From Bacillota bacterium (lineage in GTDB: Bacteria > Bacillota > Sulfobacillia > Sulfobacillales > Sulfobacillaceae), in the NCBI GenBank assembly GCA_021820965.1, contig JAKACZ010000019.1, positions 1 through 64,000 on the forward strand: DNA of 64,000 bases. Direction: 5' to 3'. Made by a program: the position numbers and the translations under genes. A model generated the notes under the pieces. The model searched no databases and was not told where the DNA came from. It worked only from the letters and a program-made list of their open reading frames with translations. Below are positions 327 to 62,247 of the stretch, piece after piece. Position 1 is the stretch's first letter, and each line of letters starts with the position of its first letter.

Positions 327-870
327 GTTAAGGACGCCGCGATGACGACCCTCGGAAGTCCCCTGATGAATGCGGCCCGGTGGCACAATTGAACACCGTA
401 CCTGCGCATTCCCATCCTGCGGATACTGCGCCTTCTTAGGCGGCAGCCAAGGAATCTGTGGCCAGACGAAGATGCAGCGGATGGTCTACAGCTTTTGCGA
501 GGAGCACGAACTGGACGCACTCTGCGTCGGAGAAAACACAACGGGGGCAACTTGATCAATCTCCCGGCGTATGTTCGGAGCCGGCAAGCCAAGGCGAACG
601 CTGCCGAGCGGTCTGATGCGGCATCTGGCTCGATCCAAGAAGCACTTTGGGTTTCACGGGGGGGATCCGGTTAAAGCGGTGGTTCCCGAGGCAATATGCA
701 AGAAACCTGCCGTGTTATGGTCGGATCAGTGGCCACTTCGACGTTACCATCGATGGCCACAAAGTGGCCCAAGGGATTTCGTACCGGTTGTTGTCGTGTG
801 CTCTAACGCGGGGACGGCTGGCAGTATACTCGACAAGAAAGGGGAGCACGGCTCCTCCCCGGTCTGCATG
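327..870 (+). pseudogene. iscB: decayed C-terminal third of an IscB protein plus element right end
   Basis: Three short frames together match the C-terminal part of the intact IscB at 12387..13775: a KDAA/MNAARW piece near 327-390, TKMQRMVYSF followed by ELDALCVGE near 466-535 (the RuvC-III region), and SKKHFGFHGGDPVKAVVPE near 631-692. Frameshifts separate them and no N-terminus, bridge helix or HNH remains. The match is followed at about 840-866 by a GGGGAGCACGGCTCCTCCCC palindrome, like the palindrome after the intact iscB. It is a dead relative of the same element family. Confidence 0.7.
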
Positions 871-894
871 CTGAATTTTTCCGCACGTGCATGA

Positions 895-1766
895 AACCTT
901 AGGTGTAATGTATAGTTGCCATGGAAAGGAACGATTTTAAATGGTTATTGACGGACGTGCGATGACGTGGCTTCAGAAACATCATGTGCATCAATTAGCT
1001 ATTCGGATTAAGATTAGGCCAGGGTGAGTCCCGAGTTATGACCCATTTGTAGAGTGGGATCCGCAAGACGTGAACGGACTTGTGGCGCGACCATACGAAC
1101 AAATCACAATGTACACGCCGGATTGGATGAGCGATGACGCGTGGCAACAGGTCAAACTGGTCTGGCATCCGCTTTGGAAAAAAGTTGTCATAAGGGGGTG
1201 GAATCCTCAGTTTGGCATCGATGGGCCTGCCGCGCATAAAAAAAGCGCTTGGTAGTAACGTTTACACCGACCACGTTACGCCAAAACGTCCCAGTGTTCG
1301 GCCCTCCGAATCGCCTGAAGGCACCAATACCGTTGGGATTTACGCCACGGTCCGTCGTGCATCGGTACATAGCTTTGGGGAATAGCACTTCTCTGGTCTC
1401 CGATGTTTTCGCCCATAGTGACTAGTGGCAGCCATTTTGGCCAGCTTAAACGCGGCCAGATCGCTGTCACATGTGTGTCCAATCCAGTAAGGCCGCCCTT
1501 ATATTGCATGGGGCAGGGATTGCGCGAGAGGCCGCCATCACACCGAAGATCCGTGAGAAAGTACAGATCCCCGGATCCTTCCATGATCTTCCTGAAGGGT
1601 GATACCCCGAAAGCGCAGATTGGACCAACTGATGCTGAGCATCTTCAGGCATAAGGTTCCCTGATGTGGAAGAAGGAATCCTATGCGCCTCAAACCCTCC
1701 GTTGCGCCCGATATCGCCCGAGACCCCGGATCTTCTTAACTCAAAAAGCATGACGGGCATATTTTT
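895..1766. other. gene-poor, degraded DNA
   Basis: No convincing gene is visible in this stretch. A 61-codon frame at 1070-1255 and several overlapping frames on both strands between 1276 and 1760 have no recognisable domain and no clear ribosome site. The context of broken mobile elements on both sides suggests eroded insertion sequences. Confidence 0.5.
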
Positions 1767-2618
1767 GTCGAGTAGCCTGCAGGCGCCGTGCTGTAGGTGG
1801 ACTGTCGCTCTGTTGGCCGGCCCTTTCGGGTGACGGTGCCTCAGTACGCCACCCTACCCGATTTTCTGCAGGCCCTCTAAAATTCCGTACCGCGGGTTTT
1901 CCCTGGTACGGCTTCAAACGACCACTCCTCCCGGAGTCTGCTGCAGCACGGGACTGGCTTAAAGGCACCCGCCTGTACCCCGGCTGCCTGGCGCGTTGGC
2001 TCCGACGTACGGAGATGCGCGGACCCCACCGGCATGCCCAGCACCGTATCTGATCCGGCCGCCTTGCCCATCCCTCGGATCGTCCACGGGTCCTTTGCCT
2101 ACCCGGCGGTTCTCATACCCGCCTGATCTCCGGCACTATGACCCGATCCGCCAGACTCGGTCCCACGACCCGATTTCCTGCAGCAGCAGTTATACGGGCT
2201 GCCTTGCTCTTCCCGGGTGGTCCGAGCGGGCACCGAGTCCTTCCCAGCTTTGCTTGCTGTACTCTGTTCCCGTGCCGTTGTCCATACACCGCATGGGCTT
2301 TGGGTGCCTGTGCCCGACTCTTCCCCAAAGCTACCAGCCTTCGCCTCCGCGCGCCGGGCTCGGCCCCTGGACGCCGAGACACCCACTTCCGTCCGGAGTC
2401 TTCTTTCGATGCCGCAACATTCGCTTCATGCTACGGCCCGGCAACTCATGAGCCTCCCTGGTGGGTCTCACCCTCGCGGCAACGGAGACCTTACCCTCGG
2501 AGCTTGCACCGAGTGGGTCACCCCAGCTCGATGTCCGATTGATTACACGCTCGGACGGGCAGTCCGCGCGGCCGGACTTACACCGGCTAGTACATCAAGG
2601 TTACTGGCTGCACCGCAC
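1767..2618 (-). mobile_element. ORF-less group II intron
   Basis: Read on the minus strand, the element starts with the group II 5' consensus GTGCG at 2618. It contains the motif ACGGGAACAGAG that is familiar from group II domain I. Near its end (1914-1881) is a domain V-like hairpin: CCGTACC pairs with GGTACGG around a short capped stem with a 2-nt 3' bulge. A domain VI-like arm (GCCTGCAG pairing with CTGCAGGC) leads to TACTCGAC at 1767, placing a bulged A just before the 3' end. The arm carries an insertion of roughly 100 nt. The length is 852 nt, with no reverse transcriptase frame. The lower part of domain V is imperfect, so activity is uncertain. A related 5' fragment lies at 41165-41456. 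Confidence 0.6.
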
Positions 2619-11336: not shown

Positions 11337-11990
11337 TCATGGTCATCCAATCGGGGCTAAGGCGACACGTCCCGGGTGTGCCTGGGCTGACGTGAAACGT
11401 TGACTATCCGTAGCGTCTGTCACCACTAACCAGGGGAAAACCGACCCTGCGCCTGAAAAGGGTAAACGGGCGGTAGGATGAGGCCAACAGGTGCGCCGTG
11501 GTCCGGGCAGGTGTCGAATGTTAAGCGCTCTTGGAAAGCAAGGGTTTTCGGCTGCATGCATGCTAATTGATGCGCCACGGAAGATCGGAACCAAGGGGTC
11601 ATATTAGAGACAACCGGGATCGCCATGAGCATATGGGGGTGTCCGACGACCTTTATATAGCCCTTCCGGTACGGTGGCTTGGGCTCTTTACGGCACTTTG
11701 TTTTGGCCATCGGCTAGTGGCTGACTGTTTTGGGGGGCTGTTCCTTCGGGGCTGGATAATCGGCTAACCAACGCACACCACCATTGCGTGTCGAAATGGT
11801 CGTGGAATGTTAAGCATTGTCGCGCCGTTGTAGCCGTCACCGCCAAATCGGGTTCCCTGCACCTAGGGTTTCACTGAGTCCGGCACGGTTCCGCCTATGA
11901 CCGACTTGCGCCGGTAGTTGGTAACAGACTCGATAGTAACCTCATCCGGGCATACGCAGTGTGCGACGCCGACAGGTGGAAGGCTGCTGG
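11337..11990. other. intergenic region without a visible gene
   Basis: Several frames of 60-90 codons occur on both strands but none has a recognisable domain or ribosome site. The right edge supplies the promoter of the omega-RNA. Confidence 0.5.
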
Positions 11991-11996
11991 TATAAT
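11988..11996 (+). promoter_or_regulatory. extended -10 promoter for the omega-RNA
   Basis: TGGTATAAT is a perfect extended -10 element, with no good -35. Transcription would begin near 12003, about 16 nt before the omega-RNA scaffold. The promoter lies in the flank, not inside the element. Confidence 0.5.
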
Positions 11997-12002
11997 GGAA
12001 GG

Positions 12003-12386
12003 CAACACCAATGAAAGAGTCAACCACCCCGGCCTGAAGGCCGGAGCTTGAGGGAAACCGTAAGCTCCATCGGTTGACCAGCTTTAGTCGCCGGAACTGA
12101 CAGCAGCTTTCGCAAGCAGGCTGCGGGAGGCGAGCGGCTCCGTTCCTTTGGCGCAGACCCGGGAGTGCTTCTCCAGCCCCCGGCTTTCTCCCGGACTTCA
12201 AACGAAGTCCCGGAACTCTCCCGGGCTTCAAACGAAGTCCCGGGACTCTGGTCCTCCGCTAAACGCCAGCTCGGGGTAGCGCGAGCCGTGCGGAGGGATG
12301 ATGCAACCCATCGGAACATGGGCGAGGAGAGAGATTCTTCTGAATCCGTTACGAGCCCCTTACGGGGCTCCGAAAGGAGACGTCTC
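12003..12386 (+). ncRNA. IscB omega-RNA with putative 16-nt guide
   Basis: The gap upstream of iscB is strongly structured. GTCAACC (12019-12025) pairs with GGTTGAC (12072-12078), enclosing the hairpin CCGGCC-TGAA-GGCCGG (12029-12044) and a GAGCTT/AAGCTC stem. Further downstream are a CAGCAGC...GCTGCG hairpin, repeated GAAGTCCCGG blocks and a final GAGCCCC/GGGGCTC hairpin just before the gene. IscB omega-RNAs are known to lie directly upstream of iscB with the guide at their 5' end. If transcription starts near 12003, the guide would be CAACACCAATGAAAGA. Boundaries are inferred. Confidence 0.7.
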
Positions 12387-13775
12387 ATGGTTTTTGTCTT
12401 AGATAGGCATCAGAAACCGCTCATGCCTTGCACCGAAAAGCGGGCGCGGCAATTGCTCGAACGGGGCCGGGCCGTCATTCACAAGATGGCGCCGTTCACG
12501 ATTCGGCTCAAGGATCGCCGAGTCGAAGACTCCGCGTTGCAGCCCCTCCGGCTCAAGTTGGATCCCGGCAGCAAAACCACCGGTATGGCGATGATTTTGG
12601 ATGGTCAGTACGGTGCTCAAGGGGTCTTTTTCGGGAAGATAGTCCACAAACCTCACATTAAATGGCGTCTTCAAGCCCGGGCCAGCGTGCGGCGCGGACG
12701 GCGGTTTCGCCATACCCGGTACCGCCCGGCGCGGTTTGCCAACCGTCGGCGACGAAAGGGTTGGCTGCCGCCGTCACTGGAAGCCCGGGTCGATCAGACC
12801 GTCCATGCGGTGCACAAGGTCCGAACTCTCGCGCCTATCACGGCAATCAGCGTCGAACACGTCAAATTCGACACCCAGCAGATGCAGAATCCCGAGATTA
12901 CCGGCGTCGAGTACCAGCAAGGCACGCTGTTAGGGTATGAGATTCGCGAGTATCTGCTGGAGAAGTGGGACCGGTGCTGCGCGTACTGCGATGCTAAAGA
13001 TGTCGAGTTCGAGGTTGAGCATGTCCACCCCAAGGATCTAGGCGGCTCGGACCGCGTCTCCAATTTGGCGCTCGCGTGTCCCGCTTGTAACACCAGCAAG
13101 AGCAATCAGCCGCTGGCCGCGTTTCTCGCACAGGATGCCGGGCGGCGGCGACGGGCGGCTCAGCATGCCAAAGCCTATGCCGGCAAGAATCCCTACAAGC
13201 AACAGGAACGGGCCCGCTGGGAAGCCACTCGCCTCGAGCGGGTCCAACGCCAGATGAAAGCCGCGCTGAAGGACGCGGCGGCCATGAACGCCACTCGCTG
13301 GCGGCTCTACGAACAGTTGAAGGCGACCGGGCTGCCCGTCGAAGGCGGGTCCGGCGGTCGGACCAAGATGCAGCGGATTGCGCACGGATTACCCAAAGAA
13401 CACTACTACGACGCCTTGTGTGTTGGGGCCAGCACCCCGGCGGCCTTTGCCCGCCTTTCGGCCTACGTTCAGGTCTGGTCGGCCAAGGGCCGCGGGAACC
13501 GACAACGGTGCCGAACAGACAAACACGGTTTTCCCATCCGGCACTTGTCTCGGCAGAAAAACCACTTCGGGTTCCAAACCGGGGATCTCGTTCGAGCGGT
13601 GATTCCGCGCGGGAAATATACGGGTACCTGGACCGGCCGGGCGACGGTGAAGGCCAGGGGGTCTATTGTAATCGCGACGGAAATCGCCGTCAATCCGGAG
13701 ACAAGCTACCACCACTGCCGCGTCCTCCAACGGGGGGACGGCTGGCAGTATACCCAACGGACCGTGAGTGTCTAA
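12387..13775 (+). CDS. iscB: IscB RNA-guided nuclease
   Basis: The 462-residue protein has the full IscB order: an N-terminal PLMP-type domain (PLMPCTEKRA at 11-20), RuvC-I with D59 in LKLDPGSKTTG, an Arg-rich bridge helix at about 94-128, RuvC-II with E157 in ISVEHVKFD, an HNH domain (CAYC 198-201, FEVEHVHP, and CPACN 231-235), and RuvC-III with H339 and D342 in HYYDALCVG. All catalytic residues are present, so it should be active. The family is the ancestor of Cas9 and cuts DNA guided by the omega-RNA upstream. The ATG at 12387 follows AAAGGAGA; an upstream extension in frame is noncoding RNA. No TnpA transposase is nearby, so mobility would need one in trans. Confidence 0.93.
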   Translation: MVFVLDRHQKPLMPCTEKRARQLLERGRAVIHKMAPFTIRLKDRRVEDSALQPLRLKLDPGSKTTGMAMILDGQYGAQGVFFGKIVHKPHIKWRLQARASVRRGRRFRHTRYRPARFANRRRRKGWLPPSLEARVDQTVHAVHKVRTLAPITAISVEHVKFDTQQMQNPEITGVEYQQGTLLGYEIREYLLEKWDRCCAYCDAKDVEFEVEHVHPKDLGGSDRVSNLALACPACNTSKSNQPLAAFLAQDAGRRRRAAQHAKAYAGKNPYKQQERARWEATRLERVQRQMKAALKDAAAMNATRWRLYEQLKATGLPVEGGSGGRTKMQRIAHGLPKEHYYDALCVGASTPAAFARLSAYVQVWSAKGRGNRQRCRTDKHGFPIRHLSRQKNHFGFQTGDLVRAVIPRGKYTGTWTGRATVKARGSIVIATEIAVNPETSYHHCRVLQRGDGWQYTQRTVSV

Positions 13776-13780
13776 AAAGG

Positions 13781-13827
13781 GAGGAGCGGCGCTCCCCTCC
13801 GCCCTGAAGGACGGAGTCCCCACGCCG
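13781..13827 (+). mobile_element. right end of the IscB element
   Basis: Directly after iscB, a GGGAG...CTCCCC palindrome and the CCCTGAAGGACGGAGTCC hairpin form a subterminal structure of the IS200/IS605 kind. It resembles the other right ends in this window. The left boundary is near the start of the omega-RNA scaffold at about 12019. Confidence 0.55.
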
Positions 13828-13868
13828 CATTATTAGGATGGCTCGAGTTGGGGGGTGAGGACAAATCG

Positions 13869-14237
13869 ATGCAGGATTTGATGATTGGACGGATTGGAGC
13901 TGCCGTTGACGACCGAGTGCGTCGCGTATTGGTGGACCGGTTATGGCCGCGAGGGGTCTCCAAGGCCACGGCGCCGTGGGACGTCTGGCTAAAGGAGATC
14001 GCGCCCAGCACTGACTTGCGCAAGTGGTACGGCCATGAACCGGAACGGTATGCAGAATTTCGGCAACAGTATTGGCATGAGCTGGAATCCCGACGCCGGG
14101 ACCCGGCTCTTGAGGAGTTGGTGGCCATTTGGCGGGAGCACCCGGTGATGCTGTTGACAGCCACCAAGGATCTCGAGTCAAGCCAGGTGCCAGTGCTGCG
14201 GGACTTTTTGCTGCAATTGGAGGGTGAGCAGGTCTAA
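13869..14237 (+). CDS. DUF488-family protein
   Basis: The 122-residue protein carries the DUF488 signature: RVLVDRLWPRGVSK near the N-terminus, WLKEIAPSTDLRKWYGHEPERYAEF in the middle, and a hydrophobic VMLLTATKD strand. The function of the family is not established. The ATG at 13869 follows GGTGAGG by eight bases; a TTG at 13848 is possible but weaker. It starts shortly after the IscB element's end. Confidence 0.85.
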   Translation: MQDLMIGRIGAAVDDRVRRVLVDRLWPRGVSKATAPWDVWLKEIAPSTDLRKWYGHEPERYAEFRQQYWHELESRRRDPALEELVAIWREHPVMLLTATKDLESSQVPVLRDFLLQLEGEQV

Positions 14238-61297: not shown

Positions 61298-62247
61298 CGC
61301 CTGAACGCGGCGGCCCGGAAGCCTCAGGGAGCGGCCGCGCCCATGGCAAGGCCATTCTCATGGGGGAGCACGCCGTCGTTTACGGATTTCCCGCCATTGC
61401 CCTGCCCTTGCTGACGGTCACGGTTGATGCCACGGTGCAACTGTCCACCGATGCGGATTGGCTGGATTGCGCGTATTATCGCGGACCTCTGGCTAAGGCT
61501 CCCTCGGAACTGGGCGGATTGCGGCTACTTATTGAGGAATCCCGGCGGGCGCTTGGTTCTCCCTCCCGCGGCACGACGGTGCATATTGACTCCATGATTC
61601 CCCCCGAATACGGCCTGGGCTCCAGCGCTGCAGTGGCGGTAGCCATTGTTCGGGCGATGTATGACCTCTTTCATCAGACCCTGGCGGCAAAAGAACTGGC
61701 GTCTCTGGTGCATGTGGCCGAGGTTCACGCACACGGATCACCCAGCGGCATTGATGCCTGGGCGGCCAGTGTCGATAGCGCCCTATGGTTTGTACCAGGT
61801 CAACCACCCGATCCGCTGCCGCTTAGCCGGCCGCTGTTTCTGGTAGTGGCTGGTTCCGATACACCCGGCAACACCCGCGACGCGGTCCGGCGGGTGAAGG
61901 AAAGCCAGGCGCGATTCGGAGTGGGAGCAGGGCCCATTGCGCGCATAGGTGAGTTGACTCGAGCCGCACGTCCCGCCTTAGTCAGAGGAGATTACGGGTT
62001 TTTGGGCGCCCTGATGACGGAAGCCCATCGGGAACTGAACGCTTTGCACGTCGCTACGGACCACTTGAATCGGTTAGTGTCGACAGCGCTTCGCGATGGA
62101 GCGCTCGGTGCAAAATTAACCGGCGGCGGAGGCGGCGGCTCAATGATGGCCTTGGCTGCCGACGGTTCTCAACAGATGCAACTGGCCGAGGCGCTGAGGC
62201 GGGCGGGGGCGCGCCAGGTTTGGACGCCGGTTGTGGGAGGGTCTTAA
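61294..62247 (+). CDS. mvk: mevalonate kinase
   Basis: The 317-residue GHMP kinase phosphorylates mevalonate. GRAHGKAILMGEHAVVYGFPA is the N-terminal motif, YGLGSSAAVAVA the ATP loop, and KLTGGGGGGSMM the C-terminal motif. The GTG start overlaps the reductase stop (GTGA). The next pathway gene is mvaD, separated by an inserted element. Confidence 0.92.
   Translation: MTPERGGPEASGSGRAHGKAILMGEHAVVYGFPAIALPLLTVTVDATVQLSTDADWLDCAYYRGPLAKAPSELGGLRLLIEESRRALGSPSRGTTVHIDSMIPPEYGLGSSAAVAVAIVRAMYDLFHQTLAAKELASLVHVAEVHAHGSPSGIDAWAASVDSALWFVPGQPPDPLPLSRPLFLVVAGSDTPGNTRDAVRRVKESQARFGVGAGPIARIGELTRAARPALVRGDYGFLGALMTEAHRELNALHVATDHLNRLVSTALRDGALGAKLTGGGGGGSMMALAADGSQQMQLAEALRRAGARQVWTPVVGGS

What the first reader, a model, noticed from the sequence alone, without database searches (positions are those of the whole stretch)
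12003..13827. Intact IscB with a readable omega-RNA and a predicted 16-nt guide
All RuvC and HNH residues are present, and the upstream RNA region folds from GTCAACC/GGTTGAC at 12019. A TGGTATAAT promoter in the flank would start transcription near 12003, leaving exactly a 16-nt 5' tail (CAACACCAATGAAAGA), close to the known guide length. The promoter thus comes from the insertion site, which makes the guide a copy of the flank. No tnpA is near, so the nuclease may be domesticated or act on trans-mobilised copies.
Basis: partly seen in the sequence, partly recalled or inferred. Interest (0 to 1): 0.8.

Follow-up and report, generated by a model that had tools for sequence, protein, structure and literature searches.

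The report
IscB transposon inserted beside a gene start
This is an intact copy of a known kind of jumping gene whose RNA-guided DNA cutter carries a guide copied from its landing site; its wider family settles mostly right in front of host gene start codons, which would explain where the guide RNA gets its promoter.

Summary
An intact IscB gene (12387-13775) lies behind a HEARO/omega-RNA that starts at 12019. Other copies with unrelated flanks show that 12019 is the element's left end and 13837 its right end, so the 16 nt before 12019 are host DNA copied from the landing site. The exact 16-nt tail is unproven: most copies have no such promoter. 'Domesticated' is not supported. The element is multicopy, and tnpA genes lie elsewhere in the genome.

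The right flank explains more. In 48 family copies with a resolved right end, and 48 from other bacterial groups, that end abuts RTGA/RTGG (few exceptions), matching the published NTGA/NTGG motifs of IsrB. In about half to three quarters this looks like the start codon of a same-strand host gene (alaS, nth, galE, yicC). Uninterrupted sites in relatives confirm it to the base. The guide is thus host 5' leader, and the host gene's promoter can transcribe the omega-RNA. The window copy sits in the leader of a DUF488 gene, 31 bases before its ATG. A Shine-Dalgarno at the foot of the right-end hairpin may keep host genes translated (hypothesis).

The parts
11969..11996 (+). promoter-like site in the host flank: CCGACA, 16 nt, TATAAT with TG before it; probably the promoter of the interrupted leader of the downstream DUF488 gene
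   Evidence: consensus match only, no transcript data
12003..12018 (+). predicted guide CAACACCAATGAAAGA, host flank just outside the left end
   Evidence: left end set by unrelated flanks of other copies; at up to 1 mismatch the only match in the own genome is this site, using a near-identical pattern that leaves out the last base
12019..13837 (+). whole element, left end to right end, 1819 bp
12019..12337 (+). omega-RNA scaffold (HEARO, RF02033)
   Evidence: 75.9 bits, E 5.3e-15, full model; below the curated threshold of 83
12387..13775 (+). iscB, 462 aa, RuvC and HNH residues present
13777..13785 (+). Shine-Dalgarno-like AAGGGAGGA directly after the iscB stop, flush with the foot of the right-end stem
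   Evidence: conserved in position in 61 of 95 copies
13786..13828 (+). right-end imperfect hairpin; foot stem GCGGCG 13786-13791 / CGCCGC 13823-13828
13838..13841 (+). ATGG, predicted target-adjacent motif, host DNA outside the right end
   Evidence: RTGA or RTGG at the right end of 48 family copies where the right end was resolved
13869..14237 (+). host gene (DUF488), same strand, whose 5' leader is interrupted
   Evidence: PF22752, PF04343; start codon supported by orthologues aligned from residue 1

Best explanation
The feature is an intact single-gene IscB (OMEGA) transposon of the IS200/IS605 type, mobilised in trans. It inserts without target duplication immediately 5' of an RTGA/RTGG motif, usually on the same strand as the gene downstream. 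RTGA/RTGG is the insertion motif and, by analogy with IsrB, the motif IscB needs for cutting. The host bases 5' of the left end become the guide, so the guide plus the motif on the right flank reconstitute the empty site. IscB would then cut alleles that lack or have lost the element, favouring its retention. Because RTGA is often a start codon and copies persist mostly there, the guide is usually host leader and Shine-Dalgarno, and the host gene's own promoter lies upstream and can transcribe omega-RNA, iscB and host gene together. In the window the element sits in the leader of a DUF488 gene, between a consensus promoter and the gene's own ribosome site, with ATGG as the motif. Shown here: ends, omega-RNA, intact protein, right-flank motif, start-codon enrichment, empty sites of other copies in relatives. 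Inferred: transcription from the host promoter, guide length, cutting, trans mobilisation.
For: Left end shared with unrelated flanks. Right end abuts RTGA/RTGG in 48 family copies where the end was resolved. In a second set of 48 elements from other bacterial groups it abuts RTGA, except that three were matched at TTG (L250, L267, L287), two of which have ATGA three bases on. Empty sites: L057 against G012, gapless across the junction, 94% over 320 nt...GGGATCAGCG|ATGAAATC; L252 against Halomonas genomes...GGATACCCT|ATGAAAAGC. Second set: open frame of at least 100 codons from the RTG in 34 of 48, against 778 of 3250 background RTGA sites, p 1e-11; Shine-Dalgarno upstream plus open frame 16 of 48 against 135 of 3250, p 1e-10. 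Family set: 12 of 32 against 57 of 989, p 3e-7. Pfam domains begin at residues 2-5 of several downstream genes: YicC 2, epimerase 3, AlaRS 5. Shine-Dalgarno tetramers about twofold enriched in the 16 nt before the left end. NTGA/NTGG motifs and guided nicking are published for IsrB (PMC9581776).
Against: No expression or cleavage data. The window copy has no empty site in the 60 relatives searched, uses ATGG rather than ATGA, and is 31 bases upstream of the host start codon rather than at it. Promoter-like sites 20-40 nt from the left end are only modestly enriched. Start-codon enrichment could come from selection against other insertions rather than targeting. The script that placed the right ends looked for RTG[AG] in the family set and NTGA in the second set, so the motif count is partly circular; the open-frame, Shine-Dalgarno and empty-site tests are not.
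Confidence: 0.82

Rival explanations
1. Domesticated IscB: a fixed, immobile copy kept for a host function, with a fixed guide.
For: No tnpA on the contig; intact gene; no uninterrupted site found.
Against: At least a dozen HEARO matches and about 40 element fragments in the same genome, with varied flanks; HEARO in 25 of 34 family genomes; a Y1 transposase open frame of 151 aa at C89 and other Y1 matches; flank and guide not conserved in relatives.
Confidence: 0.06
2. The TATAAT match is coincidental: the omega-RNA is made by read-through from further upstream or from an internal start, and its 5' end is set by processing.
For: Most copies have no promoter match at 20-40 nt; leader lengths of the interrupted genes vary, so a constant guide would need trimming.
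Against: This copy has a 10 of 12 match with TG in a region where 0.6 such sites are expected; exact TGNTATAAT occurs 4 times in 134 copies x 200 nt and 3 of these are 22-32 nt from the left end.
Confidence: 0.35
3. The element has no preference for start codons; survivors are simply those insertions that disrupt nothing. This concerns only the cause of the enrichment and is compatible with the rest of the best explanation.
For: An RTGA motif fits start codons by chance; a non-disruptive landing site is what purifying selection would leave.
Against: Does not by itself explain why the leader side rather than other intergenic sites is favoured, or why a Shine-Dalgarno recurs at the right end.
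Confidence: 0.5

Closest known systems
IscB / OMEGA systems of IS200/IS605 (ISC) elements
   Same: RuvC+HNH IscB, HEARO omega-RNA 5' of the gene, guide from the left flank, no target duplication, motif on the right flank
   Different: No difference shown for this copy; the published family papers (Altae-Tran 2021, Kapitonov 2015) were not read (Altae-Tran not held), so the comparison rests on my knowledge and on PMC9755519 and PMC9581776
DtIsrB and relatives (PMC9581776)
   Same: NTGA (DtIsrB), NTG and NTGG motifs match the RTGA/RTGG seen at the right ends
   Different: IsrB lacks HNH and nicks; that paper does not mention start codons
HEARO RNA (RF02033)
   Same: Full-length match starting at the element's first base
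   Different: Score slightly below the curated threshold. I recall, unverified, that the original HEARO description already noted ATGA/GTGA at the 3' side
Split ribosome-binding sites with a hairpin between Shine-Dalgarno and AUG (phage T4 gene 38, from memory)
   Same: Right ends have a Shine-Dalgarno, a stem and about 10 nt before the start codon
   Different: Function not tested; in the window copy the predicted fold does not favour it

Membership tests
IscB (RNA-guided endonuclease) | family profile over cut-off, RuvC and HNH motifs | tested here: met
IscB (RNA-guided endonuclease) | omega-RNA (HEARO) immediately upstream | tested here: met
   E 5e-15 over the full model, though 75.9 bits against a curated threshold of 83
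IscB (RNA-guided endonuclease) | RNA-guided DNA cleavage next to a target-adjacent motif | not testable with these tools
   needs biochemistry; the right-flank motif agrees with published IsrB motifs
IS200/IS605-type element | defined ends with subterminal hairpins, insertion 5' of a short motif, no duplication | tested here: met
   (empty sites of relatives' copies, not of this copy)
IS200/IS605-type element | Y1 TnpA inside the element (autonomous members) | tested here: not met
   none on this contig; Y1 matches elsewhere in the genome, so it is filed as a non-autonomous member
Domesticated nuclease | conserved locus and guide, loss of mobility | tested here: not met

The most novel reading that the evidence does not exclude
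IscB/HEARO elements are start-codon specialists: the target motif doubles as the start codon, the host leader becomes the guide, the host promoter drives omega-RNA and iscB, and a Shine-Dalgarno at the foot of the right-end hairpin, brought near the RTG when the hairpin forms, keeps the host gene translated. That would make insertion harmless even in an essential gene such as alaS.
Probability: 0.4. Interest if true: 0.75.

Novelty: new member of a known kind. Interest (0 to 1): 0.5.

Why it matters
Where IscB omega-RNAs get their promoter and 5' end, and how such elements avoid harming the host, can be tested directly. If the start codon is the target motif, the promoter question largely solves itself, natural guides become predictable from host leaders, and the right end becomes a testable translation signal. 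It also supplies natural guide-target pairs with intact empty sites.

Tried and rejected
The empty site of the window copy was sought in 60 relatives with its left flank: not found; DUF488 orthologues have unrelated leaders. A 15-of-16-base near-match of the guide region beside another copy (L074, G002) was checked with a pattern search over 34 genomes and left unexplained. A -10 motif as a general feature of left flanks: only weak enrichment. The split ribosome site as the predicted fold: foot stem favoured in 37 of 61 copies, Shine-Dalgarno unpaired in 26, both in 18, neither in the window copy, so it is kept as a hypothesis. A second GTCAACCACCC at 61799 looks like coding sequence, not an element end. 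Library searches for IscB with start codon or Shine-Dalgarno found no paper on the point; Weinberg 2009, Altae-Tran 2021 and a 2023 Nature paper looked up by DOI are not held.

Full report
The element. The window holds an intact iscB (12387-13775, 462 aa) that passes the curated IscB model by far, has RRXRR and HNH domains and keeps the RuvC and HNH residues. Upstream, HEARO matches over its full length from 12019 to 12337, E 5e-15, somewhat under the curated score.

Ends. A search of the own genome found 40 matching places. Alignment of the left sides shows that similarity starts at the same base, GTCAAC, with unrelated DNA before it; the same holds for nearly all of about 95 HEARO loci in the family. 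So 12019 is the left end, and 12003-12018 is host DNA. A profile of right ends placed the right end at 13837. The element is 1819 bp and holds no transposase. The genome has Y1 transposase matches, one with a 151-aa open frame, and TnpB genes, some beside ends that resemble this left end.

The right flank. In 48 family copies with a resolved right end, the end abuts RTGA or RTGG; a few others with weaker matches had no RTG in reach and were left out. Six junctions were set by hand to the second of two nearby RTGs. Joining the flanks restores natural leaders, for example GGGGGAGtgacg|GTGAGAAATCC and GGAGGtaagcacaat|ATGAAAGAG. Against background RTGA sites of the window, Shine-Dalgarno plus an open frame of at least 60 codons occurs in 12 of 32 against 57 of 989. 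A scan of bacterial and archaeal genomes with an IscB alignment gave 80 loci, many in other groups; left ends came from HEARO. In 48 of them, 34 have an open frame of at least 100 codons from the RTG, background 24%. Pfam supports several as true starts: AlaRS, YicC, an epimerase. In the carrier of L252, a metagenome-assembled Halomonas, alaS has one copy, and relatives have the uninterrupted site. In one case (L275) the flanks differ from the empty site by 20 bases between two ATGA motifs.

The window copy. Its right flank is ATGG, and the DUF488 start codon (13869) is 31 bases on. So it sits in the leader, between the promoter-like site and the gene's own ribosome site. Its empty site was not found. 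Over 134 copies, promoter-like sites 20-40 nt from the left end are few, although exact extended -10 sites cluster there.

The right end as a translation signal. A Shine-Dalgarno (at least 5 of 6 of AGGAGG) lies flush with the foot of the right-end stem in 61 of 95 copies, against 3.6% of control stretches. The linear distance from the foot to the RTG is 49-96 nt (5th to 95th percentile), but about 10 nt if the stem is looped out. Partition-function folding supports the stem in 37 of 61 copies, and not in the window copy. No room is left for another gene inside the element after this Shine-Dalgarno; that it serves the host gene is inference.

Known and new. NTGA, NTG and NTGG motifs are published for IsrB (PMC9581776). 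I recall, without being able to check, that ATGA/GTGA was noted for HEARO in 2009. The start-codon statistics, the link to promoters and guides, and the right-end Shine-Dalgarno were not found in the library searched. The window copy itself is a new member of a known kind.

Noticed in passing
window 700-900: Decayed remnant of another IscB 3' end and right end (GGCTGGCAGTATACT...AAAGGGGAGCACGG...).
   Followed up: partly
window 2426-2589, minus strand: Group II intron D1-D4-4 match, 57.5 bits.
   Followed up: no
L074 (G002:C63:86899-86914): GCAACACCAAAGAAAG, 15 of 16 bases like the window guide region, lies within 25 bases of the left end of another IscB element; the pattern with one free base occurs exactly only twice in 34 genomes.
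   Followed up: partly
L032 (C59), L036 (C69), L038 (C89): Left-end-like sequence (30-55 bases) close to TnpB genes; at C59 and C89 tnpB is on the opposite strand. IscB and TnpB elements may share ends and a transposase.
   Followed up: partly
L275 against L308: Empty site has two ATGA motifs 20 bases apart; the inserted allele lacks the 20 bases between them.
   Followed up: no
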